Positions 1 through 61,345 are shown, counted from the first letter of the stretch. The stretch is 61,345 nt of DNA from Gemmatimonadaceae bacterium (GCA_019752115.1 JAIEMN010000030.1:1-61345); one strand, 5' to 3'. Notes: generated by a model not told the origin, from the sequence alone. Numbers and translations are program-made.

Positions 1-2785
1 ATCGCGTATTTTCCGAGCTTGATCTGGACCGCTCTGTCAAGAGCGTCATCGCGCACATTGATTGCTTTGTGCTGGACCGCGATCCCGCGGCGGCGCACGA
101 GCTTCTTTCACCTGCGCTGGCTGGGGGCGTTGCTCCGCCCGCCCCTCCTGGGCCCTCTGCCGGGCCGCCCGCACCTCCTGGGCCACCGCCCGGGCCGCCC
201 GCGGGGGCCGCCGCGGGCGCGGATCCCGTTGAATCGGGGTTATTGAAGTTCCACGTCGACAGCCGCAGCGGCTGCGCATTCGGCGTCGTGTTCTGCGCGA
301 GCGCCGCCCCACCACCCTGACCGCCGCCAGCAAAGACGCTCTGCGCGCCCGCCACGTTCAGCACCGGGTTCTGATTGAAGTAGACCGGGAGCTGCTTGTC
401 GAAGCCGTACGCCAGCGGGCTCTTGGCGTCGGTGACCACGCCGCGCAGAATCGTGCCGCGTGCGAAGAGTTGCGTCGGGTTCTCCACCGTGACGCCGTTC
501 GTGAGGTTGTACGCCGGGAAGATCGTGGACGTGCTCCCTTCCACGATGAGCGTGCCACCGGCCTGCACGAACTTGTACAGCTCCGTGAGTCCATCCATGC
601 CCAGCCCGCCGCGAATATCGGCAGTGCTATCGGGCGCACCGAGGTTGGGCGTCAGCGCGCTCTGCTTGTACGGGAGCGGGGCGTCACCGTTCTTGAGAAT
701 GCCGGCGATGTGCGACTGCGCGCTGCCGCCGACCGACGGATAGATGATGACGTCGTACTTGGCGCGCAGATTCCCCTTCCGGAGTTCGGTGTCGCCGAAG
801 TAGCTGTACGGCACGCCGTACACATCGAGCGCGGCGCGCACCCACCCTTCATCCTGCGTGCGCTGCCAGGCGTGCGCGTACCCAATGCGCGGCAGGTCGA
901 GCTCGTGCTGCTTCACCGCCGGCGCGGTGGCCACCGCGGTCGCCGAGAGGCCAAGGTCGGTGAGCGACGCGGCGATCTTGGCACGATCGCCGGCGGGGAT
1001 GATAAACGTACCCGCGCCGAACTTCTTGCCACCCGCTTCGAACTCCGCCTCGGCCGCAAACATCTTGGTCGTGGCGAACGTCGTGCGGAACTTCATCAGG
1101 TTATTGTCGGTCGTGTGCGGAATGAGGAGCACATTCCCCGTGCCCTCGACGCCGCCCGCCGCCTTCACCTTCGCCGTCACCGGATTCATGGCGATGTTGA
1201 GTACCGCCTTGTCGCTCACCGGGAGAACCGCCACGTTGCGCATGAACTGGAAGGTCCAGCCCGTATCGTCGTACGGCTGCGGATTGGCCGGCGAGTAGTT
1301 CTGGATGCTGAAGTACATATCGGCGAGCGTGCGGAACGGCTGATCGCCGCGCACGATCCAATCGCCGGCCTTCACCGTGACGCCGCCGAACGTACCGCCG
1401 GCGGTCGCGACATGCAGCTCGAGCCCCTGCTTGCGCAGTTCGTTCACGGCGTCCGCTGCATCGGCCTTGCGCTTCTGCCCCGCCGGAATGACCCACGCGT
1501 ATGGGCCGGCGCCGGAGCGCCCCTTCTCCATCGCGCGCTTGTTCTTGAACCAGTAGTTCTCGAGGTACGTTGCCTTCTGATCGGCGAAGTGCTTGAGGGA
1601 AATGAGAACGGCCGATTCCTGGATGTTCGTGTTGTTGCGGGGGCCCCACTTAATGCTCGCCAGCGGCGGATTGGGCCGGAACCACTCCTTGCTGGTCGTC
1701 GTGGCCGGCGGCCGCACTTCGTAGTTATCGGGGCCGTAGCTCTGCACTTCGTAGAAGCGCCCGATGGCGTTCTTGGTGTGCGCCACGAAGAACATGTAGT
1801 TGGGCGTCCACCCATCGTAGAAGCCATACGTCCACACGCCGGGGACGCCACGCTTGGCCATCTCGCGCACATCTTCCTGCGCCATGGTCCACCACTCGGT
1901 CACCGTGATGGGATCGATGGCGTCGTTGTACGGGCCGGTGCCGGTGGAGCTGTAGAGATACGTCTGCGCTTCGTGCAGATCGTGCATGACCTGCGGCTTC
2001 CACTGGAGGTAGAAGTCGTTGACGTTCTTGGTGAGCGACAGGAACTGCCCCATGCCGTCGCGGTTGTTGTCGTGCGCGACGTACTTGCCCCAGTACATCA
2101 GCGGCAGGCGCGTGGCGCCGGCCGGAAGCTTCTTGTTGTAGTAGTACGTATCCACCTGCTTCTCACGACCGTCCACTTCGATGACGGGCGTGATGAAGGT
2201 GATGATGTTGTTGCGGATGTTCTGGATGAACGGCGTCTCTTCGACCACGAGGCGGTACGCCAGCTCCTGCAGCATTTCCGGCCCGCCGGTCTCCGGCGAG
2301 TGAATGCCGCTGGTGAGCCAGTAGATGGGCTTGGTGGTCTTGATGAGCTGCTGCGCGCGCTGTTCGGTGGTCTTGCGTGGATCGGTCAGCTCGGAGAGCT
2401 CCCCGCGATACTTCTCGAGATCGGCGATGGTCTTTTCGTCAGCGATCGCGAGCACGACCATGTCGCGCCCTTCCTCGGTCTTGCCGATCGTCCAGTACTT
2501 GGCGCGCGGCGATGCCTTGGCGATCGCCTCGAGATAGCGGTGAATGTCCTTCGCGTACGTCAGCTCACCGGGCGTCCCCACAATGCGCCCGTGAAACTTG
2601 AGCGGCGTGGGGACGGTGCTCGACGCGGGCAGGTGATCGACCAGCTCGGTGCTGATTCGGGCATCCTGCAGATATTCCTTGATCTTGGCGGTGTACTCGG
2701 GGTCGTTCGCCTGCTGCTGCGCCGGCAGTACGACCGGCACCACAGCGAGGGCGCTGGCCAGCAACCAGCGTCGGGTCTGAGACAT
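1..2785 (-). CDS. Secreted M14-family zinc carboxypeptidase, C-terminus cut by window edge
   Basis: The minus-strand frame opens at the ATG at 2785 and has no stop before base 1, so the gene is partial (more than 925 codons). The N-terminus MSQTRRWLLASALAVVP is a signal peptide, so export is predicted. A zinc-carboxypeptidase HxxE motif (GIHSPETGG) lies near residue 160 and a later ligand-type His (MHDLHEA) near residue 267, as in M14 peptidases. The C-terminal part contains a Rossmann-like ThuA/glutamine-amidotransferase-type stretch and then a Gly/Pro/Ala-rich low-complexity tail from about residue 840. The last ~110 bases (1-110) no longer read like this family, which may mean a frameshift or a sequence junction. 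Role inferred: extracytoplasmic peptide hydrolysis. It is divergent from the DUF1028 gene. Confidence 0.85.
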   Translation of the reverse strand, partial: MSQTRRWLLASALAVVPVVLPAQQQANDPEYTAKIKEYLQDARISTELVDHLPASSTVPTPLKFHGRIVGTPGELTYAKDIHRYLEAIAKASPRAKYWTIGKTEEGRDMVVLAIADEKTIADLEKYRGELSELTDPRKTTEQRAQQLIKTTKPIYWLTSGIHSPETGGPEMLQELAYRLVVEETPFIQNIRNNIITFITPVIEVDGREKQVDTYYYNKKLPAGATRLPLMYWGKYVAHDNNRDGMGQFLSLTKNVNDFYLQWKPQVMHDLHEAQTYLYSSTGTGPYNDAIDPITVTEWWTMAQEDVREMAKRGVPGVWTYGFYDGWTPNYMFFVAHTKNAIGRFYEVQSYGPDNYEVRPPATTTSKEWFRPNPPLASIKWGPRNNTNIQESAVLISLKHFADQKATYLENYWFKNKRAMEKGRSGAGPYAWVIPAGQKRKADAADAVNELRKQGLELHVATAGGTFGGVTVKAGDWIVRGDQPFRTLADMYFSIQNYSPANPQPYDDTGWTFQFMRNVAVLPVSDKAVLNIAMNPVTAKVKAAGGVEGTGNVLLIPHTTDNNLMKFRTTFATTKMFAAEAEFEAGGKKFGAGTFIIPAGDRAKIAASLTDLGLSATAVATAPAVKQHELDLPRIGYAHAWQRTQDEGWVRAALDVYGVPYSYFGDTELRKGNLRAKYDVIIYPSVGGSAQSHIAGILKNGDAPLPYKQSALTPNLGAPDSTADIRGGLGMDGLTELYKFVQAGGTLIVEGSTSTIFPAYNLTNGVTVENPTQLFARGTILRGVVTDAKSPLAYGFDKQLPVYFNQNPVLNVAGAQSVFAGGGQGGGAALAQNTTPNAQPLRLSTWNFNNPDSTGSAPAAAPAGGPGGGPGGAGGPAEGPGGAGGATPPASAGERSSCAAAGSRSSTKQSMCAMTLLTERSRSSSENTR

Positions 2786-2908
2786 CTCGGCTCCGGGGAG
2801 AGGGGTACTGCCAGAGTGTACGCGCTCCCGGGGCACTCCGCTCGGCGTTAATCGCGTGGTAAGGTGCGCTTTCCTCCTCGGTCGCTGCTGCGGCTGAGGA
2901 CGCTGTAC

Positions 2909-2988
2909 CTGATCTGCGGAGGGGCGGAGCAACGGAAATCTTCACGCTGTGCTCTGTTGCCCCGATCCTCCGCCCCTCCGCAGATCAG
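2909..2988. repeat. Perfect 20-bp inverted repeat in a divergent intergenic region
   Basis: Arms at 2909-2928 and 2969-2988 are exact reverse complements (left arm begins CTGATCTGCGGAGG) separated by 40 bases that contain a smaller GCAAC/GTTGC pair. It sits between the divergent starts of the M14 peptidase (2785) and DUF1028 (3045). There is no T-run, so it is not an obvious terminator. It could be a regulatory site or a relative of the larger palindromes seen elsewhere in this window. Confidence 0.8.
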
Positions 2989-3044
2989 TCACAACAGACT
3001 CGCCCCCCGCACAGATCTCCCCGCCGCCGCGCATATTCTCGCAC

Positions 3045-3812
3045 ATGCGCCTCCGACTCCTCTCCCTCGCGCTGGCCCTCGCGCCGGCGGTTGCCGCGGC
3101 TCAGTCCGCCCCGCAAACGTTTTCCACCATGCCGGCCGCGCCGTGGCCGCCGGTGGCGACGTTTTCCATTCTGGGCTACGACCCGGCCACCGGCGAAGTC
3201 GGCGGGGCCGTGCAGAGCCGCGTCTTCTCGGTCGGCAATGGCGTGCTGTGGGCCGAGGCGGGGGTGGGCGCCGCGGCGACACAGGCCATCGTGGACGTGA
3301 GCTACGGCCCGCAGGCCATCGCCCTGCTCCGTGGCGGCATGAAGCCCAAGGACATCGTCAAGAAGATCTGGACCGATGACCCCGACCCGCGTCCCACCGA
3401 TTGGACCAAGGAAGGGCGCCAGTTCGCCGTGATCGACGCCCAGGGAAATGTCGCGGCCTACACCGGCCCCAAGGCCACCGAGTGGGCGGGCGACAAGCAA
3501 GGGAAGTTCTGCACCGCCCAGGGCAACATCCTGGCCGGCCCGGACGTGGTGAACGCCATGGTGAAGGCGTTCGAAGCGACCGAAGGCCATCTCTCCTTCC
3601 GCCTACTCGCAGCCCTTGAGGCCGGCCAGCTCGCCGGCGGCGACAAGCGCGGCATGCAGAGCGCGGCGATGCTCATCGTCAAGAAAGACGCAGGCGTGTG
3701 GCTCCACAACGATGTCGTGCTGCGGCTGCAGGTCGACGACAATCCGGAGCCGATCAAGGAGCTGCGACGCTTGGTGGAGAAGGCGGCGACACAGCGTCGG
3801 CCACGTCGATGA
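3045..3812 (+). CDS. Secreted DUF1028 (Ntn-hydrolase-like) protein
   Basis: 255 residues from the ATG at 3045. That start is chosen because it begins a clean signal peptide (MRLRLLSLALALAPAVAAAQ); the frame is open further upstream but runs through the inverted repeat. The body matches DUF1028: TFSILGYDPATGEVGGAVQS after the leader, GVGAAATQAIVDVSYGPQA, the segment containing EGRQFAVIDAQGN, and FCTAQGNILAG. DUF1028 belongs to the Ntn-hydrolase fold and is found in bacteria alone or next to peptidases; its substrate is unknown. Convergent with the VPS10-like gene, from which a 113-bp palindrome separates it. Confidence 0.85.
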   Translation: MRLRLLSLALALAPAVAAAQSAPQTFSTMPAAPWPPVATFSILGYDPATGEVGGAVQSRVFSVGNGVLWAEAGVGAAATQAIVDVSYGPQAIALLRGGMKPKDIVKKIWTDDPDPRPTDWTKEGRQFAVIDAQGNVAAYTGPKATEWAGDKQGKFCTAQGNILAGPDVVNAMVKAFEATEGHLSFRLLAALEAGQLAGGDKRGMQSAAMLIVKKDAGVWLHNDVVLRLQVDDNPEPIKELRRLVEKAATQRRPRR

Positions 3813-3825
3813 CGAGTTGTGAGCT

Positions 3826-3938
3826 GAACTGAACGCACAGAGTACACAGAGCCACAGAGGGCACTGAGGCGCGCTCCGGCATTCTCGAAGCGCGCCCCAG
3901 TGTCCTCTGTGGCTCTGTGCTCTCTGTGCGAGCAGTTC
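3826..3938. terminator. Long imperfect palindrome between convergent genes (bidirectional terminator candidate)
   Basis: Left arm 3826-3873 and right arm 3889-3938 pair over about 45 positions around a loop of about 15 bases. The arms are built from a degenerate heptamer-like unit (CACAGAG / ACACAGAG / CCACAGAGG). The right arm ends one base before the stop codon of the VPS10-like gene. Its place between two convergent stops fits transcription termination in both directions; the length is far beyond that of an ordinary Rho-independent hairpin and no long T-run follows. Confidence 0.75.
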
Positions 3939-6900
3939 CTACTTCACGTCCGCCACCACAATACCTGCCGAAGCCAACGCAGCCAGAAGCCGCGGCAGAT
4001 CGGCAGAGCGAATAGCCGACAGCTTCGTCATCTGCCCGGCAAGCTCCTTCTTCAGGTCAGCAAGCAGCTGCCTCTGCGCCGCACTGACCGGGAAGTTCGC
4101 GTTCACCGCGCTGTTCAACGACCCCGCGCGACTCGAGAACGACATATCCGGCGCCCCGCTCGCGCCACGATCATCATCCTCGTCGACCGGTGCGCGGGCG
4201 GCGGCGCCCAACGTGGTACGTGAGGCCGGCGACGCGCCCACCTCACGCACGAACGCGCCGAGCGCCTTCTCCAGGGCGACGACCGAATCCTTGAGCACCG
4301 GCGTGGCCTTGGTGCCGGCGCTGTCGAGCGCCTTCTTGGCGGCCGCGTAGCGCTTGATCACCGTATCGGCCTGCGCCTGGGCATCCGTGACGCTCCGCTG
4401 GAAACGGACCACGTCGAGGCGGAAGTCGTCGAGTGCCTTGAGCTGCGCGACGCTCATCGGCTGTTCGGGGTCGCGCAGCAGGGTAAAGCGCTGGGTGCGC
4501 ACCACCGATTCGCCCTTGGCCATCGTCACCGTGAGACGAACCGAGTAGTCGCCCGGCACCGCGGTGTACGTCGCCGGGCCGCGACCAAAGCCGCCGCCGA
4601 ATCCACCACCGAATCCGCCGGCGCCACCGCCGCGCCCCGCGGGCGTGGTGTCGATGGGCGCGGTGAGCGGTGCGCCCACGCGCATGTCCCACACGGGGCG
4701 GAAGAGCCCCGTGCGCTTCGGCACCGGCAGCTCACGCACCACGCGCCCGGACCCGTCGACGACCTCAAGCTTCGCCTTGCTCACGCCGGCGGTATCCGGC
4801 ATGAGGTACGCGAAGCGCACGCCATGTTCCGGGTTCTGCCCCGTCCAACCGGTGGAGCCCATGCCGCTGTTGCGGCTGGTGTTGAGCGTGAGCGCGATCT
4901 CGTTGCGCACGGGGAAGAGATAGGCGCCGCTCTCGCGCTTGGCGGCCGCAAGATGTTCCAGCGGCGACAGGTCATCCAGAATGTAGATGCCGCGCCCGTG
5001 CGTCCCGAGCACCAGATCGTTCCAGCGCTCCTGAATCTGCAGATCCCACACCGGCACGGTGGGCATGCCGGCGTTGAGCTTCGTCCACGTGATCCCGCCG
5101 TCGATGGTGAAGTACGCGCCGAACTCGGTGCCCACGAACAGCAGGTTGGGCTCGCGATGATGCTCGCGAATGACCTGCACTGCCGCACCCGCCGGCAGAT
5201 TCCCGGTGATGCTCGTCCACGTCTTCCCGAAATCGGTGCTCATGTAGACGTAGGGCGTGAAGTCGTTGCTGCGATGCCCGTCAAAGGTCGCATATACCGT
5301 GCCCTCGGCGTGCCGGGACAGCTGCACACTGCTCACGTACGTCGTATCGGGCACCCCCGGGAACGCCGTCACGCGGCTCCAGGCGCCGCCGTCGTTGCGC
5401 GTCACGGCGATCACGCCGTCATCCGTGCCCACAGCCAGCAGCCCGGCGCGCCGCGGCGATTCACTCACCGTGCTGATGTTCGAGAACGCCGCCGTGCCCT
5501 CGTGCCGGCCGAGTGCATCCTTGGGCGGCACACTCCCGCGCAGCGGCAGCTTGTCGCGGTCGATGTCGCGCGTCAGATCCGGACTGATCGTCTTCCAGCC
5601 GTCGCCGTATGCGGTGCTCTTGAACAAATGGTTGGCTGCGAAATACACGGTACCCGCCGCATGGCGGCTCGGCACGATGGGCGCGCTCCAGTTGTAGCGG
5701 TGCTTCTCACCCGCGTTCGCGAACGGCTTGATCCCCTTCGTTTGCCCCGTGCGCGTGTCGTAGCGCACGATGCCGCCATTCTGAGACTCGGCGTACACAA
5801 TCTTGGGATCGAACCGGTCGGTCACGTTGTAGAAGCCGTCGCCGCCCGCCATGCGATACCAGTCGGCGTTGCTTGGGCCGAATGGCGTGCGCGTGCGGTT
5901 CGGTCCGCCCCACGTCTGGTTGTCCTGCAGGCCACCGTACACGTGGTAGAACGGAAACTGATCGTCCACCGAGATAGCGTAGAACTGCGCGCCCACGATG
6001 TTCTCGACGTTGTACCACGTCTGCCCACGATCGTAGGAGATATCGAGGCCGCCGTCGTTGCCGAGCACGATGTGGTCGCGGTCGTCCGGATTGATCCAGA
6101 GCGCGTGCGCATCACCATGCACATTGCCGTTCACGCCGAACGCCCGCCACGTCTTGCCTCCGTCGTAGCTCTCCTGGCTGGTGGCATTCAGGCGATACGC
6201 ATGCTCGGCGTCGGTGGGGTCGCAGCGCACCTGGCTGTAGTACCACGCGGTGCCGTTGCTGGCGTCCACCTTGCGCCACGTGCTGCCGGCATCGTCGCTG
6301 CGATAGAAGCCGTTGCCCGCCGCCTTGGCGTGCACGCTGGCGTAGAGCGTGCTGGGGCGCGAACGACAGACCGACAGGCCAATACGCCCCAGTTCACCAG
6401 TGGGCAGGCCGCTCGTGAGCTTAGTCCACGTCTTCGCGCCATCGGTCGTCTTCCAGATCGCGCTTTCGGTGCCGCCGGGGAGGAAACCATACGCGCGGCG
6501 CTCACGCTGCAGGCTGGCGGCATAGAGCACATCGGGGTTCGACGGATCGATCACGACCTCGGTGAATCCCGTCTGCGCCGAGATGCTCTTGGTGTTCGTC
6601 CACGTCGTGCCGCCATCGGTGGTCTTGAAGAGACCGCGCTCGCCGCCGGCAGCCCAGAGCGGGCCCATGGCGGCGACGTACACCACGTTCGGATCGCGCG
6701 GATCGATCGCAATGCGCCCGATGTGCTGGGTCTTGGGGAGCATCGGCTTGGACCACGTCTTGCCGCCGTCGGTGCTCTTGAAGACGCCAATACCCCAGGA
6801 GCTCGAGCGCATGTTGTTCGCCTCGCCCGAGCCGACCCACACGACGTTGCCGTCACTCGGCGCCGCGGCCACAGCGCCGATGGACCCCACACCGATCGAG

Positions 6901-53224: not shown

Positions 53225-53262
53225 AAAAGTGCCGTAACGACCTAAGTCGTTACGGCACTTTT
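53225..53262 (-). terminator. Perfect 17-bp-stem terminator of the tRNA-Gln
   Basis: Arms AAAAGTGCCGTAACGAC (53225-53241) and its exact complement (53246-53262), loop CTAA. On the minus strand it ends in TTTTTG, a strong Rho-independent terminator directly after the tRNA 3' end; it can also stop plus-strand readthrough from DUF2442. Confidence 0.9.
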
Positions 53263-53278
53263 GATTGCCTTTCGGCGA

Positions 53279-53351
53279 TTGCCCCTCCTGGGGTCGAACC
53301 AGGAACCTTCTGATCCAGAGTCAGGGCACACGCCAGTCTATACCACCTGAC
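53279..53351 (-). tRNA. tRNA-Gln(CUG), 5' half degenerate: left attachment site of the integrated element
   Basis: On the minus strand, anticodon stem-loop CCTGA-CTCTGGA-TCAGA with anticodon CUG (53316-53318), variable loop AGGTT, T-arm CCTGG-TTCGACC-CCAGG and 3' acceptor AGGGGCA (53280-53286), discriminator A; CCA not encoded. The 5' side, however, has no TGCCCCT acceptor strand and no normal D-arm, and runs straight into the integrase upstream region. I read this as attL: host 3' half joined to element sequence. The restored tRNA should lie at the element's right end, beyond the window. A detector might still call it a tRNA. Confidence 0.75.
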
Positions 53352-53492: not shown

Positions 53493-54809
53493 ATGCCTGT
53501 TACTGAGCAGACACCCACGAGAGCCCGAGCTGCGACCTTTGCCGAAGAGATCGACGCGGTGCTCGCCGAGCCCCACACATGGCCCCGTGACATTCCCGAT
53601 TTCGGCCTTGGGTCTGTAAAGGGCTTCAAGGCTCGCGTGAACCGGGATGGCTCGGTGACGTGGTCGGTGAGCTACCGGACCCCCGGTGGCCGGGAGGCGA
53701 GCACCGTGCGCCGCGTGAAGCTCGGCGAGATGGATCCTCGCAGCCGCCAATTCCTCAGCCTGCGAGATGCCCGTCGTGAGGCCCTCGTCTATCTGGCGGA
53801 GCGACCCGAGAAGGCAGCACCGGCCCCCGAACCCGCGCCCCCACAGACGATTGGGATGCTCTTCGCTGAATACCTGAAGAGCCGAGCGGGCATCCTGAAG
53901 CCGGGAGTCCTGGCGGAATACAAGCGTCTCTTCGACCGCGAGATTGCCGACACGTTCGGCAATTGCACCGTCGAGGCAGTTACTCGCGCGGATGTTGTCC
54001 GATGGCACGAGGGCTTCAAGAAGAAAGCGTACGTCGGCAACAGAGCGCTCGCCGTCATTCGCGCCTTCTACACATGGGCGGCGAAGCGTGACCTGATCCC
54101 AGCAGGCGCGAACCCCGCGCTGCTGGTGGACAAATTCAAGGAGTCGCCGCGCGAACGGGTGTTAACCGTCGAGGAGTTCGATCGACTGAGCGAAGCACTG
54201 ACCGAGGCCGAGCTCCACGGCCTCCCGCCTGCCCCTCGCTATCGGAAGAAGCCGAAGTCAGAAACGACGGCCAAGCATCGGCCAAAGTCGGCCGATAAGC
54301 CGATTCCGGCCTCGCCCATCGCCGTGGCAGCGCTTCGTTTTCTGCTGCTCAGCGGATGGCGCCTCTCTGAAGCACTTACGCTGGGATGGGACGACCTCAA
54401 CTTCGATCTCGGTGTTGCCGTCCTCACGGACACGAAAACGGGTCGTTCTGTCCGGGCATTGGGCGCCGATGCACTGCAGCTCATTAGGCAGCAAAAGCGT
54501 AGGAAGAGCGATCCGCGCGTCTTCCCCATCAGGAGCCTGAATCGCCTCTGGGACGCCGTACGCCACGCGGCGGACCTAAAGGACCTGCGTATTCACGATC
54601 TCCGGCACAACTTCGCGACGCTCACCGCCAACGATGGCGCGCCCCAGCACTTCACCCAGAAGCTGCTCGGCCATCGGGACGCGAAATCAACCCAGCGCTA
54701 CTCCCACCTCGCCGACCAATCGGTGCGGGCGCTCGCCGACAAGACGAGCCGCACGTTGGGGGCGCGCCTCGGGCTTCCGGCGCCACCGTCAGAGTCCTCT
54801 GCGCCCTAA
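53493..54809 (+). CDS. int: Tyrosine recombinase/integrase
   Basis: 438 residues from ATG 53493; the frame is open upstream through the tRNA and is not coding there. Arm-binding and SAM-like domains come first (VNRDGSVTWSVSYRTPGGRE, IGMLFAEYLKSRAGILKPGV), then the catalytic domain: Arg in LLLSGWRLSEALTLGWDDL (~288), HxxR in IHDLRHNFATLTANDG (~369-372), His in LLGHRDAKSTQRYSHL (~394) and Tyr ~403. P4/phage-type integrase acting on the adjacent tRNA-Gln. Upstream is AT-rich with a GTGTAGCCGTG direct repeat (53450-53471). A terminator follows. Confidence 0.95.
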   Translation: MPVTEQTPTRARAATFAEEIDAVLAEPHTWPRDIPDFGLGSVKGFKARVNRDGSVTWSVSYRTPGGREASTVRRVKLGEMDPRSRQFLSLRDARREALVYLAERPEKAAPAPEPAPPQTIGMLFAEYLKSRAGILKPGVLAEYKRLFDREIADTFGNCTVEAVTRADVVRWHEGFKKKAYVGNRALAVIRAFYTWAAKRDLIPAGANPALLVDKFKESPRERVLTVEEFDRLSEALTEAELHGLPPAPRYRKKPKSETTAKHRPKSADKPIPASPIAVAALRFLLLSGWRLSEALTLGWDDLNFDLGVAVLTDTKTGRSVRALGADALQLIRQQKRRKSDPRVFPIRSLNRLWDAVRHAADLKDLRIHDLRHNFATLTANDGAPQHFTQKLLGHRDAKSTQRYSHLADQSVRALADKTSRTLGARLGLPAPPSESSAP

Positions 54810-54858
54810 GACGCGGCGACCCGAACCAAGAAGGAATATCCCAAGAGCCCTACACAAC

Positions 54859-54900
54859 AGATCCGTCAGCCCTCGCTTGCTGGCGGATCTTTCGTTTTGT
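54859..54900 (+). terminator. Rho-independent terminator after the integrase
   Basis: Stem AGATCCGTCAGC (54859-54870) with GCTGGCGGATCT (54879-54890), one G-U, loop of eight, then TTTCGTTTTG. Between the integrase stop and the next gene. Confidence 0.88.
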
Positions 54901-55075
54901 AGGATGCGGTGTCGGACTCTTGGCTTGAATTCGCGGTCGCACTCACGGGTGCACTGGGGCTGCGCGATGGCGCCCCCTTCCGACGACCACGAGCAACACC
55001 GTGCTACTTGGGGCACGGTGTCACCGCGCTCGGCGCCTTAGCGCCGCGCCTGACTCGTGAGTTGGAGCGTACCCG

Positions 55076-55366
55076 ATGACAGCATTGCCAGTCCCCGTCC
55101 CTTCCGTGGACGACGAAGACCTCCTCCTGACGGTGAAGGAGGCGGCTGCCGCCGTGCGGCTCGCGCCGTCTACTCTCGACAAGATGCGAACGCTGGGTAC
55201 CGGCCCCGAGTACTCAAAACTTGGCGGCAGAATTTTCTACTCGACGAAGGCGCTTGCTCGTTGGATTCAGAGCCGCACCCGAACGGCGGTCCATACAACA
55301 TCCGATGGTATCACCCGCGAACTGCCGAAGCGCCACGCCCCCCGCAGTCGGAAGCCGCGTCGATGA
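55076..55366 (+). CDS. AlpA/excisionase-like HTH protein
   Basis: 96 residues. EDLLLTVKEAAAAVRLAPSTLDKMR as a MerR-type HTH, GTGPEYSKLGGRIFYSTKALARWI as the wing and helix: the AlpA/HTH_17 layout of phage excisionases and regulators. The Arg/Lys-rich tail (KRHAPRSRKPRR) is unusual. Its TGA overlaps the ATG of the head-protein gene (ATGA at 55363). Confidence 0.85.
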   Translation: MTALPVPVPSVDDEDLLLTVKEAAAAVRLAPSTLDKMRTLGTGPEYSKLGGRIFYSTKALARWIQSRTRTAVHTTSDGITRELPKRHAPRSRKPRR

Positions 55367-56403
55367 ACGACACCACCGAAATGTTCGGCCCGGAGTGGCA
55401 GCTCCGGTCCATCATCGCGCGCGCCCGGGCTGGCGAGACCCTCGCCAATGACGTCCTTCGCGTCTTACGCGACGCCCACCGCGAGATCGCGGAGGACGTT
55501 GCCAAGCTCGGCATCGACAACCCGACTCGCGCACGGTACACCGCCCTACTGAAGAGCATCGAGAAGATCATCGATGAGGCATACGCCGATGCGCGTAGAG
55601 TGGCGACCGAAGGACTCCTGCAGATCGATGCTGCGGAGCGCGCGGCACTCGCCGGAGTGGCCGTCTCGCACCCGCCGTCAATCGGCTTGGAGTTGGGTAC
55701 GCAGGTTCCTCGCGCGCTCGCGGTGCAGGCGGCAGCCCTGCCGCACATTGTCGACGAGATCCCCCTTCGCGGAATCAACTTCGGTCAGTGGTGGACGCAG
55801 GGGGCCAAGGCCGCGCTCAGTCGAGTACAAGATCAGGTGCAGATTGGTCTCGTGCGCGGCGAGCATCCGCACCAGATCGCACGGCGGGTCCATCACGCGA
55901 AGAGCAAGGTAACTGGAACAGCGGGCGGCGAGGCCTGGAAGGGAACAGTGAAGGCCGCGCGCACGGTGATGCGAACGGCGGTAACCGCTGTGCAGACGCG
56001 GGCCTCCCTTGACGGAATGCGGGCAGCTGGGATCACGCGCGTCCGATTCGAGGCGATCCTCGATGCACGGACCAGCGTCATTTGCGCAGCGTTGGATGAC
56101 AGCGAGTACGACATCGATGACGCTGATCTTCCACTACCTCCTCGCCATCCGCAGTGCCGTAGCGCGCTGGTGCCGATCGTCACGTGGGCGAGCGGACCGA
56201 ACGCCGGAAAGCCCGTGATTCCGCGTGGTCGCTCGTACGAATCGTGGCTTCGAGAGCAGACCGACACGACGCAGAACAAGATCCTCGGTCGTACCCGTGC
56301 AGAAGCATGGCGAAAGGGATACGTAAGTCTCGGCGATCTTATCGCGCGCGACTCTAGGCCGCTTCGCCTTACTGAGTTGGCGGATCAGCTGCGTCCGCAC
56401 TGA
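55363..56403 (+). CDS. Phage Mu gpF-like minor head/morphogenesis protein
   Basis: 346 residues from ATG 55363. Helical N-terminal half (RSIIARARAGETLANDVLRV), then GLVRGEHPHQIARRVHHAKS and the conserved C-terminal Mu-F/SPP1-gp7 domain: RFEAILDARTSVICAALDDS, LPLPPRHPQCRSALVPIVTW. In phages this gene follows the portal and is packaged in the procapsid. Here it comes directly after an AlpA-type regulator, with no portal gene visible. Confidence 0.88.
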   Translation: MNDTTEMFGPEWQLRSIIARARAGETLANDVLRVLRDAHREIAEDVAKLGIDNPTRARYTALLKSIEKIIDEAYADARRVATEGLLQIDAAERAALAGVAVSHPPSIGLELGTQVPRALAVQAAALPHIVDEIPLRGINFGQWWTQGAKAALSRVQDQVQIGLVRGEHPHQIARRVHHAKSKVTGTAGGEAWKGTVKAARTVMRTAVTAVQTRASLDGMRAAGITRVRFEAILDARTSVICAALDDSEYDIDDADLPLPPRHPQCRSALVPIVTWASGPNAGKPVIPRGRSYESWLREQTDTTQNKILGRTRAEAWRKGYVSLGDLIARDSRPLRLTELADQLRPH

Positions 56404-56670
56404 CGCGAAAAGCGCGAGTGTGTTGTGGTTTGCACAACAGTGCGAACGTGATGAGCGACTCCTGCATTGCAGAGCGGCGACCTGTGTTGACAAGCGCGCT
56501 GATCGTCGTCACCATAGAGGTGCCGCTTACCACGGCGCTGCTAATCGCAGCACCACACCACACGGGGACACGCGCAGCGGGCCACGCGCAGGGTGTTACC
56601 CAAACTCTCTATTGAGGGTCGCAGTGCTGCGGGCGAGATCGCAGCGGTTCTTTGGTGTGGTGGGGGGGTT
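56404..56670. other. Intergenic region of the element with hairpin GTTGTG-N5-CACAAC
   Basis: 267 bases without a convincing gene. Near the start is the pair GTTGTG/CACAAC (56422-56438), then CACCACACCACACGGGG-type repeats. Contains a plausible promoter for the next gene and possibly operators for one of the two HTH proteins. No RNA gene recognised. Confidence 0.4.
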
Positions 56671-56871
56671 ATGCGGAAGATGGCTGCGAACGCAGCACTC
56701 TCGACGCGACTGCTAGATGTCGTCGCGGTCGCCGAGCAGCTCAGCTGCTCAACTGACGCCGTGCGTCGAATGATCCGACGCGGGGAGCTTTCAGCGATTC
56801 AGGTTGGCCGACTCGTTCGGGTTCACCCGGACTCGCTCGCGCGCCTCATAAGCGGAGGCGCACGCCGATGA
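56671..56871 (+). CDS. Small HTH_17 excisionase-like DNA-binding protein
   Basis: 66 residues from ATG 56671, preceded by a run of G. Single HTH_17 domain: LDVVAVAEQLSCSTDAVRRMIRRGE, then LSAIQVGRLVRVHPDSLARL. Second MerR/Xis-type protein of this element. ATGA overlap with the next gene (56868). Confidence 0.85.
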   Translation: MRKMAANAALSTRLLDVVAVAEQLSCSTDAVRRMIRRGELSAIQVGRLVRVHPDSLARLISGGARR

Positions 56872-57668
56872 CCACCATCTCTTTCGATCGCGCCCCAAGC
56901 ACCGCGACGGTCAGGCGCCTGCCCACTTCTGCACACGCAGAGCGCGCCTTTCCAGACGGCCTTGTTGCTGATGGCGCTCGACCGGTCTTCACAGTGCCCA
57001 ACGAGGCAGCGGTTCGAGAATCGCTCGGCTGGGCTGGCGACACCTTCGTCCAGCTGATCGCCGCGACGGCTGGCGTTGCGACGGAGGCGCGCGGCTCCAT
57101 CGACTGGATCGCCGACGCAGTCGTCGCGGTCGCTGGGAACTCCGATCTCTCACCTGCGGGACGCGCGAAGGCACTTGAAGCCAAGCTCGACGCAGCCAAC
57201 GCCGTGCCCGATCGGCTAGTGGAGCAGCTCGAACTCGCGGAGCGCGAGGCGGCGAGACTTCGAGCGGTCAACACCGCAGCTCGTGACACACGCGAGGCGC
57301 AGCGTGCGGCCATCGTTCGACATGTGTTCGAGTCGATGGGGCGGGATGAGGCTGGCGTTGAGATTCTTCGATGCGGAGCTGCCGCCCTCGACGGTGACCA
57401 GGACGCCATCGAGACACTTCGAGCAGTACTCGACGCACCGAAGGCATGGCGCAGTCAATACTTGCCCGGCTATGTCGAAGCGCAACGCGATACGCTTACG
57501 CTCGCGACAGATCCTGATGTCGGCGCGCGCCTCCACTGGCTCGATTGGGCGGCGACTATCGGGCACGTTGCCGTCGAAGCGCTGCGAACTTTCGTCGCAG
57601 AGGCCCGCGCGCAGGTCGGTTTTTCCAACGACCTCAACGCGTCACGCCTGACGAACGCCAATCGATGA
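56868..57668 (+). CDS. Element protein of unknown function
   Basis: 266 residues. Mostly alpha-helical with a coiled-coil-like stretch LVEQLELAEREAARLRAVNT; start MTTISFDRAPSTATVRRLPT. No signal peptide, membrane segment or known motif. Co-translated with the HTH protein in front. A hairpin AACGGGCGCC-GTTGTA-GGCGCCCGTT (57675-57700) follows its stop. Confidence 0.75.
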   Translation: MTTISFDRAPSTATVRRLPTSAHAERAFPDGLVADGARPVFTVPNEAAVRESLGWAGDTFVQLIAATAGVATEARGSIDWIADAVVAVAGNSDLSPAGRAKALEAKLDAANAVPDRLVEQLELAEREAARLRAVNTAARDTREAQRAAIVRHVFESMGRDEAGVEILRCGAAALDGDQDAIETLRAVLDAPKAWRSQYLPGYVEAQRDTLTLATDPDVGARLHWLDWAATIGHVAVEALRTFVAEARAQVGFSNDLNASRLTNANR

Positions 57669-57674
57669 AACGGC

Positions 57675-57700
57675 AACGGGCGCCGTTGTAGGCGCCCGTT
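57675..57700 (+). terminator. Perfect 10-bp-stem hairpin after the 266-residue gene
   Basis: AACGGGCGCC (57675-57684), loop GTTGTA, GGCGCCCGTT (57691-57700), seven bases after the stop. GC-rich and T-poor behind, so a weak terminator or processing site. Confidence 0.6.
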
Positions 57701-57797
57701 GATCCATCCCCATCACACCCGCGAGCGGCCCCCGTGCGAGGATCTGCCTGCTTGCGCCATACGGGCGCAATCTATTGCGCCAGACAAGGAGCAACAA

Positions 57798-58202
57798 GTG
57801 TCTTCGAAGGAACTCACGTATCTGCGCCATGACATGCACGTCCACCCGCGCATCGAGACGCTCCCGCCGGTCGAACACTTCACTTACGTGATGTTGTGGC
57901 ATATCTGCGACCACGAGGGGCGCCTCCTCGATAACCTACGCGAGATCGACGCGTTCGTTCACCATGGGCGTTCTCTCAGTTGTGCGTCGGAGCTTGAACG
58001 CCTTGCCGAACTCGGACTGATCCAGCGCTACACCGCCGCGACTGGCCATCGGCTGATTCAGATCATCGACCATGCGCGATGGTTCAAAATTTCTCCCTCG
58101 AAGTTCGTTCGCTCGAAGTATCCACCGCCGCAGGGCTATTCCCCTCCCGACCACGAAGAGACGGTTCACGGCAAACGGCCTTCGACGGAGACGGAACAAT
58201 GA
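57798..58202 (+). CDS. Winged-helix replication-type protein of the element
   Basis: 134 residues from GTG 57798; AAGGAG at 57786-57791 is well spaced and decides this start over further upstream. Sequence VHPRIETLPPVEHFTYVMLWHICDHEGRLLDNLREIDAFVHHG with LERLAELGLIQRYTAATG-HRLIQIIDHARWF is the pattern of phage helix-turn-helix replication initiators or replisome organisers. ATGA overlap with the next gene. Confidence 0.75.
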   Translation: MSSKELTYLRHDMHVHPRIETLPPVEHFTYVMLWHICDHEGRLLDNLREIDAFVHHGRSLSCASELERLAELGLIQRYTAATGHRLIQIIDHARWFKISPSKFVRSKYPPPQGYSPPDHEETVHGKRPSTETEQ

Positions 58203-58537
58203 CCACAGCCAAGCGCGCTTCGAGATCCGCGCGGCCCTGTCGGCTCTATCACGCAACCCAAACTCCGGACTTCGTCCGGGGTGACTCCAGAGTTACACTT
58301 GGGTTGCTGCGGACTGAGTCCGAAGTAGCTCCGAGCCGACTCCGACTAGAAGGTGAAGGTGTAGTTCGCGGTTTAGCTGGAGGTGTAGGCGAAGGCTTCC
58401 GCGATTTGCCCGCGCCTACGCCTTCCCATTGTGCTGCGCACGTGCCTACTCTCGCCTGCGAACCGCTCGCCGGATCAGGGTCACGGTCGACGCGCATCGT
58501 AGCCACTCGGCGGGTCAGCGCTGGGGGCGATCGATGA
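58199..58537 (+). CDS. Basic protein of unknown function, uncertain
   Basis: 112 residues, ATG overlapping the previous stop and its stop overlapping the next ATG (ATGA both sides), which argues for a real gene. Composition is Arg/Ser/Pro-rich (TTAKRASRSARPCRLYHATQ) without motif. The DNA contains CCGGAC-TTC-GTCCGG and repeated ACTCCG/GACTCC blocks, so it could instead be a replication-origin-like region translated by chance. Confidence 0.45.
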   Translation: MTTAKRASRSARPCRLYHATQTPDFVRGDSRVTLGLLRTESEVAPSRLRLEGEGVVRGLAGGVGEGFRDLPAPTPSHCAAHVPTLACEPLAGSGSRSTRIVATRRVSAGGDR

Positions 58538-59109
58538 GCAATCTCGACGTGATACTCAGTTTGGCACGTTCGCCCGACGATCGACGTTTGCTTTCCGGTT
58601 GGTACGCGTCAGCGACTACCGAAAAAATGCAAACGGCGCTCGAATGGGGCGTCCGAACACAGAACCACGTCAAGGGTCCGCTGCTGGCTGCGCTCTCGCG
58701 AGCATGGCAGTTCTTCCGCACACAGGGGCGCTCCGATTGGGATGCCAAGCAGCTCACGCTTGAAGCGCTCGAAGAGCTATTCCGGAAGAAGGGCCTCGAC
58801 CTCGGCAGAAACTTTTCAGACGGCTCCTTCGAGGCGTTCTACACGCGGATGGCAACTCGGCTGCCCGCTCGCCGAGAGCGACTCGCACCACCGACCCCAG
58901 CTGCAACTGAAGGCTTTCAGCCGCAGCACCTGCCGGAGGTCGACGATCGGTCGGAAGCCGAACGTGAAGCACAGCGCCGTGAGAACGAAGCCGCCATCGC
59001 GTCGTTCTGGGCCGCTCAGGGTCGCATCGGAGTCGGTGGTACGGCTCCGGACCTCGCGGAGCGTAAGCGTCAACTCCAGCGGCAGATCGCCTCGTGGCGT
59101 TCGGCCTAG
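58534..59109 (+). CDS. Element protein of unknown function
   Basis: 191 residues from ATG 58534, GGGGG eight bases in front. Helical: LDVILSLARSPDDRRLLSGW, KMQTALEWGVRTQNHVKGPL, WDAKQLTLEALEELFRKKGL; charged C-terminal third (SEAEREAQRRENEAAIASFW). Could be a replication helper (helicase-loader position) but no motif supports it. Confidence 0.7.
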   Translation: MSNLDVILSLARSPDDRRLLSGWYASATTEKMQTALEWGVRTQNHVKGPLLAALSRAWQFFRTQGRSDWDAKQLTLEALEELFRKKGLDLGRNFSDGSFEAFYTRMATRLPARRERLAPPTPAATEGFQPQHLPEVDDRSEAEREAQRRENEAAIASFWAAQGRIGVGGTAPDLAERKRQLQRQIASWRSA

Positions 59110-59187
59110 AGACCAACCCCTCAAAGGGCCGCCTGTCGCTAGAAGAGCACATCAGCGGCCCGATCGACCCCGTACTCGACCCAGACC

Positions 59188-59550
59188 ATGGCTCCACGAA
59201 AGAAGCCGCTGAAGTCCTCTGTAAGCGCCTCGATGTCTCGCTACGATCGTGCCCAAGCAGGCGGCGACGGAAAGGAAGCACTCCGGCGTGAACGCATGGC
59301 CGAAGCGGCAGCAGAGATGCAACCGCTCCGGACTGCCGATGATGCCTTAGAACGCCTCGACCAAATTGGCCGGTTTGCCGTGGCTGGGATCATTGCCGGT
59401 ACCAGCGCGACGGCTGCCGCCAATGCGACCCGTGCATGGGCCGCTGTTCACCGGGATGTGAAGCTCGCGGCAGAGGTGGAGCGCCTGAAGGCTGAGCTGA
59501 AGGCGGCGAAGGCCGAACGCCCCGATGCGCCGCGCGTGGTTCGTCGATGA
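59188..59550 (+). CDS. Putative small terminase subunit
   Basis: 120 residues, ATG 59188. Basic start (APRKKPLKSSVSASMSRYDR), helical core ALERLDQIGRFAVAGIIAG, coiled-coil LAAEVERLKAELKAAKAERP. Identified mainly by position: it overlaps the terL start by four bases (ATGA), the usual terS-terL arrangement. It would recognise packaging sites on DNA. Confidence 0.65.
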   Translation: MAPRKKPLKSSVSASMSRYDRAQAGGDGKEALRRERMAEAAAEMQPLRTADDALERLDQIGRFAVAGIIAGTSATAAANATRAWAAVHRDVKLAAEVERLKAELKAAKAERPDAPRVVRR

Positions 59551-61103
59551 GAGGGGGCCGACGACTCGAACGGGATCTCTCGCAACTCGCCAGCGACGTA
59601 GGCGCCTTCGCCGATCCGCCAGCGCGCTTCAGAGTACCTGCGGGGCACTCCTACCACGGTGATCCGGTCGGCTTCGTGAAGGATCGACTGCGGGCGCAGA
59701 GCGCCACGCATCGGACGAGCGGCGAACCGTACCAATTCGCGTGGCTTGGGTCGCTGACGGCCAACGATCAGGTGGTAATTCGCACGTCACACGGGGTTGG
59801 CAAAACCACGGCGCTTTCATGGGCGGCGTTATGGTGGCTGACATCGAGACCCGAGTCGTTGGTAATCGCCCTGGCACCCACTGCCGATCGCCAAGCCCGT
59901 GGCATCCTTGCCCGCGAGGTCGAGAAGTGGGCGCGGATCGGCGGTATCGATCTCCGGCGCGACGGCTACACGCTCAACCACGACGCAAATAGCGCGCGCC
60001 TTGTGATGCTCAGCGGCATGGCCGATGTCGGCAACATCGAGGGACTTCACGCCCCTGCTGTGCTGCTCATCGCCGATGAGGCCAAGTCTCTCACGGTCGA
60101 GACCCTCGATGCTCTCGCGGGCGCCTTGACCGGCGACGAGGCGCGAACACTGATGGCCAGCACGCCGGGGGCTGCCGTTGGCGCCTTCTACGATGCCTGT
60201 TCCGACGACACCGGAACATGGGTTGCACACCATATCGGCGCACCGGACAGCAGCAACGTGAACCCCAAGTGGGTACAACGGCAGGCCGCGAAGTGGGGGA
60301 CGTCCTCCCCGAGCTATATCACGCGAGTCCTTGGCGAGTTCGTCCTCGACGGGTCCGGACAGCTCTTCCCGTGGGGCCTGCTGCATGCCTCGCAGGCGTG
60401 GGAGCCCGTGGTCCCCCCGTCCCGTCATCGCTACCGCCAGACCACCATGGGCGTGGACGTCGCGCGATCGATTGCCGGGGACGCGTCGGCAGTCGTGGTC
60501 GTGAAGGACGGGCGGGTGATCCACCGGGAGACGTGGCGGGAGGCGGACTCGATGATCACCACCCAGCGGGTCGTTGCCCTTGTCGCGCAGTTCTCGCCCC
60601 AGAGCATTCGCGTCGACGCGAGCGGTCCCGGTGGGGGGGTGGTCGATCGCCTCCGGCAGCTCCGGTATCCCGTGGAAGCCGTCTACTTCGGCGGTCGCGC
60701 GTCCGAGCCGGAACGCCTCGCCAACTGGCGCGCCGAAGCCTATCACACGCTCCGGAGTCGGCTGGATGATCGCTCCCTTGCCCTGCCTGCCGATGATCGC
60801 CTGTGCGAGGAGCTAGCCGCCCTGACGGTGCTGTTCGATCGCACCGGACGGCTGCAGCTGGTCTCGAAAGACGAGGTCCGCGCGAAGCTGGGCCGAAGCC
60901 CCGACCTCGCCGATGCGCTCGCCCTCGCCGTGGCCGTCGGCGACCCGAACCTCGCCTCGCTGGCGCCGGTACGCCTGTCTGTCGGTCCGGCCACGTACTT
61001 CTCGCTCTCGCACCCGTCGCTCAACCGCCCCGATGGACTCGTGCCGTCTGGTGATCCCGTTCTCCGGATGCAGGAGCGCTGGCGTGGACGGCAGGCGAGC
61101 TAG
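59547..61103 (+). CDS. terL: Large terminase subunit (DNA-packaging ATPase/nuclease)
   Basis: 518 residues. ATPase: Walker A VIRTSHGVGKTTALSW (~81-92), Walker B AVLLIADEAKSLTVETLDAL (~173-178), coupling ARTLMASTPGAAVGAFYDAC. RuvC-like nuclease: Asp in TTMGVDVARSIAGDASAVV (~301), Asp in SIRVDASGPGGGVVDRL (~355), Asp in SPDLADALALAVAVG (~452). Complete. It packages DNA into procapsids. Its stop overlaps the stop of a truncated gene on the other strand. Confidence 0.93.
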   Translation: MRGGRRLERDLSQLASDVGAFADPPARFRVPAGHSYHGDPVGFVKDRLRAQSATHRTSGEPYQFAWLGSLTANDQVVIRTSHGVGKTTALSWAALWWLTSRPESLVIALAPTADRQARGILAREVEKWARIGGIDLRRDGYTLNHDANSARLVMLSGMADVGNIEGLHAPAVLLIADEAKSLTVETLDALAGALTGDEARTLMASTPGAAVGAFYDACSDDTGTWVAHHIGAPDSSNVNPKWVQRQAAKWGTSSPSYITRVLGEFVLDGSGQLFPWGLLHASQAWEPVVPPSRHRYRQTTMGVDVARSIAGDASAVVVVKDGRVIHRETWREADSMITTQRVVALVAQFSPQSIRVDASGPGGGVVDRLRQLRYPVEAVYFGGRASEPERLANWRAEAYHTLRSRLDDRSLALPADDRLCEELAALTVLFDRTGRLQLVSKDEVRAKLGRSPDLADALALAVAVGDPNLASLAPVRLSVGPATYFSLSHPSLNRPDGLVPSGDPVLRMQERWRGRQAS

Positions 61104-61262
61104 CGAGGATTCGCCTTGTACCACGCGTTGAGGAACTCATCCAGCATTCCATCAAGATTGCTATTGAATCCCTCAGCGAACTTTGATCGCCCAACCGAGA
61201 GAATCCGTTGCGTGGAAGACCACGTGGTCGCGTAGAAGCGAAGTGGGCTCGGTGCTGATCTC
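61100..61262 (-). pseudogene. 3' remnant of a minus-strand gene, cut by insertion-sequence-like DNA
   Basis: Reading leftward to the TAG at 61102-61100, the frame gives about 54 codons ending in KFAEGFNSNLDGMLDEF-LNAWYKANPR, a natural-looking protein end. Going upstream it loses sense at the repeats starting near 61265 and meets a stop just beyond. A gene broken by an insertion at about 61265 explains this. Family unknown. Confidence 0.55.
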
Positions 61263-61275
61263 GACACACCCCGGT

Positions 61276-61321
61276 GGACACCTCAAATCCGGCCACTGAT
61301 GTACACCGCAAAACCGGCCAC
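61276..61321. mobile_element. Terminal repeat of an insertion sequence (IS21-like), at window edge
   Basis: Two direct repeats, GGACACCTCAAATCCGGCCAC (61276-61296) and GTACACCGCAAAACCGGCCAC (61301-61321), match at 18 of 21 positions with a 25-base period. Repeated ends with ACCxCAAAxCCGGCCA are typical of IS21-family elements. The transposase, if present, would be to the right of 61345. Confidence 0.5.
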
Positions 61322-61345
61322 CACGCTGACGGGCTGAGGCTGGTT

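What the first reader, a model, noticed from the sequence alone, without database searches (positions are those of the whole stretch)
53493..61103. Compact integrated element with packaging genes but no visible portal, capsid or tail
Order: integrase, AlpA-like, Mu gpF-like head protein, HTH protein, unknown, winged-helix replication-type protein, two unknowns, TerS, TerL. In ordinary prophages gpF-like genes follow the portal, and TerS-TerL precede it; here gpF sits next to the regulator, 3 kb ahead of terL, and terL is directly followed by a broken gene and IS-like ends. This might be a satellite (PICI-like) that brings its own terminase and a head-modifying protein to redirect packaging of a helper phage, or a prophage eroded by deletion. 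Nearly all genes overlap by four bases in the same direction, arguing for a working unit up to terL.
Basis: partly seen in the sequence, partly recalled or inferred. Interest (0 to 1): 0.65.

Follow-up and report, generated by a model that had tools for sequence, protein, structure and literature searches.

The report
Capsid-less satellite with packaging-portal genes
A 13 kb genetic element sitting in a tRNA gene carries most of a virus's DNA-loading machinery (packaging motor, the portal ring it docks on, and a protein of the kind that binds the portal) but no virus shell or tail, so it most likely travels inside the shells of another virus, and related shell-less elements exist elsewhere in its phylum.

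Summary
The gene run at 53493-61103 is real, but the window is a whole contig (C30) that ends inside an insertion sequence (IS). I found the missing half on contig C2 of the same genome. The element is bounded by a 47-bp direct repeat of tRNA-Gln (C30:53278-53324, C2:5338-5384). Relatives show the empty site, with both flanks adjacent. Without the IS it is about 13.3 kb. A portal gene IS present, contrary to the title: a full-length DUF4055/phrog_145 portal, on the opposite strand near attR. No capsid, scaffold, connector or tail gene is recognisable. So the element holds int, AlpA, an SPP1-gp7-like (MuF) protein, a replication initiator-like gene, a TerS candidate, TerL and portal: the 'packaging/portal module' without the 'capsid module'. 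Its TerL falls with TerLs of other compact Gemmatimonadota elements, two of them att-bounded and capsid-less; a second TerL clade is also made of capsid-less elements. Its portal and MuF resemble those of ordinary siphoprophages, whose TerL is different. A prophage with a capsid and a DUF4055 portal sits in the same genome (possible helper). Best reading: a phage satellite bringing its own terminase and probably its own portal vertex. Function is inferred; a rearranged prophage remnant remains the main rival.

The parts
53225..53262 (-). terminator-like inverted repeat of the host tRNA-Gln, host side of attL
   Evidence: self-complementary match; similar one at C2:5298-5335
53278..53324 (-). 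attL: 47-bp 3' part of tRNA-Gln(CTG), identical to C2:5338-5384 (attR, in the intact tRNA-Gln C2:5339-5411)
   Evidence: empty site in relatives
53493..54809 (+). tyrosine integrase
   Evidence: PF00589 1.4e-21; phrog_1 1.4e-56
55076..55366 (+). AlpA/excisionase-like HTH_17 protein
   Evidence: PF12728 1.5e-8, phrog_66
55363..56403 (+). MuF / SPP1 gp7-like minor head protein, 346 aa; homology reaches residue 340, no added toxin domain seen
   Evidence: phrog_241 5.9e-54, PF04233 3e-11, TIGR01641 3e-15; full-length match to phage head morphogenesis proteins
56671..56871 (+). second HTH_17 DNA-binding protein (start codon inferred)
   Evidence: PF12728 2.7e-8
56868..57668 (+). unknown 266-aa protein, predicted all-helical at low confidence
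   Evidence: no family; pLDDT 61.5
57798..58202 (+). winged-helix replication-initiation-like protein (start inferred)
   Evidence: phrog_16167 3.6e-8; related to a protein of prophage G329
58199..58537 (+). weak ORF (112 aa) overlying a hairpin array at 58240-58346; possible cis site rather than a gene
   Evidence: not called (RNA z -3.25)
58534..59109 (+). unknown 191-aa protein
   Evidence: no family
59188..59550 (+). TerS candidate (120 aa), overlaps terL by 4 bases
   Evidence: position; similar small helical proteins directly before TerL in related elements; no profile or fold hit
59547..61103 (+). terminase large subunit; ATPase and nuclease motif residues intact
   Evidence: phrog_2 5.9e-29; invariant K86, D177/E178, D304, D357, D453, D456 in alignment A1
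61103..61268 (-). 3' part of a gene split by the IS; its 5' part is C2:78-404(-)
61269..61345 (.). end of an insertion sequence (same end on C25; the other end on C2 and C60)

Best explanation
It is a phage satellite integrated in tRNA-Gln. Shown: two att ends; an integrase; a replication-type gene; an intact TerL with a TerS candidate; a full-length portal; a gp7-like portal-partner protein; no recognisable capsid or tail gene. Inferred: after excision it replicates. Its own terminase selects its own DNA. Its own portal, with the gp7-like protein, is built into procapsids made from a helper's scaffold and capsid protein, because a portal nucleates the procapsid and is the docking site for TerL. 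Shells carrying the satellite's portal are then filled by the satellite's terminase, and the helper supplies capsid, connectors and tail. A candidate helper prophage is in the same genome (C23).
For: Boundaries: 47-bp direct repeat; in relatives DUF4160-DUF2442-tRNA-Gln-(Uma2)-GlnRS are adjacent, and C30's left flank aligns to the empty site exactly up to the end of the repeat. Join: opposite IS ends, one gene split in frame across the IS with a 4-bp duplication. Content. TerL kin: the nearest in the phylum (about 36-45% identical) all sit in compact elements, at contig ends or alone, never beside a capsid; G264 (8.9 kb) and G088 (8.0 kb) are att-bounded and capsid-less. TerL tree: clade A (window and five others, fork support 90) and clade B (98) hold only capsid-less or undetermined elements. 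Mosaic origin: portal and MuF match the G329 pair, but G329 and C23 TerL are of another kind (61% to each other, 20% C23 to the element). Candidate helper: C23 prophage with TerS, TerL, portal, MuF, scaffold, capsid and long tail gene. Established mechanism: SPP1 portal gp6 most likely nucleates the procapsid, sets its size, binds gp7 and receives the terminase-DNA complex (PMC6316719).
Against: The portal-MuF-terminase combination in a capsid-less element was seen once in 395 genomes of the phylum. The portal lies on the opposite strand, far from terL and MuF, beside unrelated genes of unknown function, which is also what a scrambled remnant would look like. The IS has broken one gene. No expression, excision or packaging data. 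TerS is unproven. The grouping of the window's TerL with clade A has support 90, not starred.
Confidence: 0.5

Rival explanations
1. A rearranged remnant of a full prophage: deletions removed the capsid and tail genes, inversions separated MuF, terL and portal, and the element no longer moves.
For: Scattered gene order and strand, an IS inside a gene, a singleton arrangement, and membrane/lipoprotein genes beside the portal.
Against: Both att sites are intact, and int, terL, MuF and portal are full length. No full phage with a clade-A TerL was found in the phylum, while small bounded capsid-less elements with such TerL were. Portal and MuF normally go with a different TerL.
Confidence: 0.3
2. 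A terminase-carrying satellite in which portal and MuF are interference factors: they poison or occupy the helper's portal vertex and do not serve the satellite's own particles.
For: Most related elements manage without portal or MuF, so these are not needed by the general strategy. MuF is coupled to the AlpA-like regulator rather than to terL.
Against: Both proteins are full length without truncation of the core; a dominant-negative role needs no TerL-matched portal.
Confidence: 0.13
3. An ordinary prophage whose capsid and tail genes lie in unassembled sequence between C30 and C2.
For: The IS body was not found in the assembly; IS copies can hide a gap.
Against: IS ends form two matched pairs: C25/C60 with an 8-bp duplication, C30/C2 with a 4-bp duplication and one gene continued in frame. 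The first 6 kb of C25 and C60 held no recognisable phage genes.
Confidence: 0.05

Closest known systems
PICI (phage-inducible chromosomal islands, including SaPIs)
   Same: Compact, site-specific integration, integrase, AlpA-type regulator, own replication-type gene, terminase small subunit candidate, no capsid or tail genes
   Different: Carries TerL, a portal and a gp7-like protein; PICIs use the helper's TerL and portal; no capsid-size gene recognised
cf-PICI (capsid-forming PICI) and Mulch/Flayer satellites
   Same: Bring their own TerS, TerL and portal
   Different: Those carry the whole head set (capsid, protease or scaffold, connectors; PMC10690885); here capsid and connectors are missing
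SPP1-type 'DNA packaging/portal module' (gp1, gp2, gp6, gp7)
   Same: Same four functions: TerS candidate, TerL, portal, gp7-like protein
   Different: In SPP1 they are clustered and followed by the capsid module (PMC6316719); here they are scattered over two strands with no capsid module
Compact terminase elements of Gemmatimonadota found here (G264, G088, G325, G198, G151, G343)
   Same: int, replication gene (most), TerL with or without TerS, no capsid; mostly beside a tRNA or tmRNA gene
   Different: None has portal or MuF; G088 and G325 have a tape-measure-like gene instead
AH14b satellite of Pseudomonas (16.8 kb)
   Same: Similar size; uses the capsids of a helper whose gene order is terminase-portal-head morphogenesis
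   Different: AH14b has no terminase gene (PMC4936722)

Membership tests
Phage satellite (general) | Discrete integrated element with att sites and integrase | tested here: met
Phage satellite (general) | Lacks the genes for a complete particle | tested here: met
   no capsid, scaffold, connector or tail hit in any element ORF
Phage satellite (general) | Mobilised in helper particles | not testable with these tools
   needs induction and particle sequencing
PICI | int, AlpA or Stl regulator, replication module | tested here: met
   (replication initiator-like only, no primase)
PICI | Relies on helper TerL and portal | tested here: not met
   own TerL and portal genes
cf-PICI | Encodes major capsid protein and connectors | tested here: not met
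cf-PICI | Encodes TerS, TerL and portal | tested here: inconclusive
   TerL and portal met; TerS only by position
Ordinary siphoprophage | TerL-portal-MuF-capsid-tail cluster | tested here: not met
   compare L049, L099, L100
MuF polymorphic toxin | Toxin domain C-terminal to MuF | tested here: not met
   no extra domain; match to phage MuF proteins runs to residue 340 of 346

The most novel reading that the evidence does not exclude
A new satellite strategy, 'portal replacement': a capsid-less satellite seeds helper procapsids with its own portal (and gp7-like protein), so that only its own terminase can fill them, on top of an older Gemmatimonadota lineage of satellites that carry their own complete terminase.
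Probability: 0.3. Interest if true: 0.85.

Novelty: new variant of a known kind. Interest (0 to 1): 0.6.

Why it matters
Known satellites redirect packaging with TerS, TerS adaptors or capsid-size proteins, or bring a whole head. One that brings terminase plus portal but no shell would be an intermediate step and a new way to monopolise a helper's capsids at the unique vertex. The wider set of capsid-less TerL elements suggests an undescribed satellite group in a phylum whose phages are little studied (no such description was found in the open papers searched), and it makes the question 'does TerL need its own portal?' testable.

Tried and rejected
Eroded or ordinary prophage as first choice: weakened by the two att ends, the empty site, and TerL kin in bounded capsid-less elements. 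Single-protein viral-contig scans with TerL, MuF and portal gave no close relative; the aligned TerL query gave viral contigs at about 30-33%. Genome contigs gave no full-length TerL match closer than about 34%. Other phyla: the TerL loci read in detail in L115, L119, L138 and L144 are followed by phage head-type genes, so they are not satellites. Structure of the 266-aa protein: low confidence, no useful match. TerS candidate: helical model, no TerS match in PDB. Rfam: nothing credible. PADLOC: nothing. Homologs of the IS-split gene: none among fetched loci. MuF toxin: rejected.

Full report
What the window is. The window is the whole of contig C30 of a draft genome of 5.17 Mb in 83 contigs. 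The phylum is Gemmatimonadota by inference: contigs of phylum-mates G394 and G442 have the same lengths (14430 and 7281) as two GTDB records titled Gemmatimonadales.

Completing the element. Window 61269-61345 is an IS end. The same end starts C25, and the opposite end starts C2 and C60. C25 and C60 flank one copy with an 8-bp duplication (TCCGATTT). C30 and C2 share only a 4-bp duplication (CACA), which I note as an oddity, but one gene runs across: its 5' part is C2:404-78 on the minus strand, its 3' part C30:61268-61103, and the frame is kept. Independently, the att sites agree. C30:53278-53324 is a 47-bp copy of the 3' part of tRNA-Gln(CTG), and the intact tRNA-Gln is C2:5339-5411 with the same 47 bp at 5338-5384. 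In relatives such as G028, G013 and G005 the C30 flank (DUF4160, DUF2442) and the C2 flank (Uma2-like, GlnRS) are neighbours around an uninterrupted tRNA-Gln. C30's left flank aligns to G013 as one 634-bp block at 81% that ends exactly at the att core. The element is therefore C30:53278 to C2:5384, 7,991 + 5,307 = about 13.3 kb without the IS.

Gene content. Left arm, all plus strand: integrase, AlpA-like HTH, MuF/SPP1-gp7-like protein, HTH, 266-aa unknown, replication-initiator-like protein, a doubtful 112-aa ORF, 191-aa unknown, TerS candidate, TerL. Right arm on C2: IS-split gene (-), 334-aa protein with a C-terminal hydrophobic end (-), lipoprotein-like phrog_6823 (+), portal (-, 2716-4188, 490 aa), DUF2335 membrane protein (-), attR. 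The portal is solid: DUF4055 6e-35, phrog_145 9.8e-88, and a match over residues 38-469 to a solved portal, 8xb5, at 3.4e-19. It aligns along its whole core with the portals of six prophages. No capsid, scaffold, protease, connector or tail protein was found.

What an ordinary relative looks like. In G329 the order is TerL, portal, MuF, then a further gene array ending in long tail-type genes. G138 and G071 also have TerL followed by portal and a MuF-type protein. The same genome as the window holds such a prophage on C23 with TerS, TerL, portal, MuF, scaffold (phrog_206), a capsid-type gene and a 1249-aa tail gene (TerS and capsid assigned by position and sequence character). It is a possible helper, not a proven one.

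Why the terminase points to a satellite. The closest TerLs in the phylum are about 36-45% identical, against about 34% or less for full-length matches in the other collections. They sit in compact elements, at contig ends or alone: G264 (42-bp att in tRNA-Pro, 8.9 kb: TerL, HTH genes, primase, AlpA-like, int), G088 (57-bp att in tRNA-Leu, 8.0 kb: tape-measure-like, TerL, small upstream ORF, int), G114 (tRNA-Pro, int, small ORF, TerL, contig end), G051 (contig end), and G225 (TerL among host-like genes). A TerL tree puts the window with these (clade A, fork 90) and shows a second clade (98) of capsid-less elements: G325 (47-bp att in tRNA-Cys, 14.0 kb, with DnaB-like and tape-measure-like genes), G198 (beside tmRNA), G151 (int beside tRNA-Ile) and G041. 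G343 is a third, separate case: tRNA-Ser, int, primase/helicase, TerS (phrog_51), TerL, then host genes. Elements that recur with deep divergence and intact att sites are hard to explain as independent decay. The survey used one genome per species, and some members are not bounded on both sides.

Mosaic origin. Portal and MuF of the element are both close to G329-type proteins (MuF also to G172), but the TerL that goes with them in G329 and C23 is of another kind (61% to each other, 20% C23 to the element). So portal and MuF were probably added to a clade-A terminase element, or this is a mosaic phage since reduced. MuF overlaps the AlpA-like gene by 4 bases, which suggests translational coupling.

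How it would work. For SPP1, the procapsid most likely starts at the portal; the portal sets shell size, binds gp7 strongly, and receives the terminase-DNA complex (PMC6316719). The element encodes the four corresponding functions (TerS candidate, TerL, portal, gp7-like) and nothing of the shell. The simplest mechanism is that its portal is incorporated into shells made of helper scaffold and capsid protein, and its own terminase fills them. Each step after gene content is inference. Alternatives are interference with the helper vertex, or a dead remnant.

Known systems. PICIs and SaPIs carry TerS or adaptors; cf-PICIs and Mulch/Flayer carry complete head modules; PICMIs carry no packaging genes; AH14b has no terminase. 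I found no description of satellites with TerL, or TerL plus portal and gp7, and no capsid, in the searches of open papers; the original papers on VEIMEs, tycheposons and cf-PICIs were not read here, so novelty is provisional.

Limits. One instance of the full combination in 395 genomes. TerS is positional. No selection test was possible at about 35% identity. The IS body was not located in this assembly.

Noticed in passing
window 58240-58346: Three-way hairpin array inside the doubtful 112-aa ORF, right after the replication-type gene (RNA fold z -3.25, no shuffle as stable); could be a replication origin, a pac-like site or a structured RNA.
   Followed up: partly
G000:C23 about 97000-135000 (L096, L097): Prophage with a DUF4055 portal and MuF-scaffold-capsid-tail order in the same genome; possible helper.
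   Followed up: partly
L091 6632-9679; L095 15229-17109: Two att-bounded capsid-less elements carry a tape-measure-like protein next to or near TerL, as if different satellites keep different single structural genes.
   Followed up: partly
L040 13734-15887 (G051:C82): TerL reads in frame into a protein-kinase-like domain at the contig end; chimera of assembly or a true fusion.
   Followed up: no
G051:C27:9595-9855 (L037): TerL fragment with two in-frame TAG codons, a degraded relative.
   Followed up: no
C25:1-77 and C60:1-77 (L032, L033): Second copy of the same insertion sequence, with an 8-bp target duplication while the copy in the element shows only 4 bp.
   Followed up: partly
L031 2055-2591 and 678-1682: Lipoprotein-like (phrog_6823) and tail-anchored-like genes between the IS and the portal with atypical codon use; possible cargo.
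   Followed up: no
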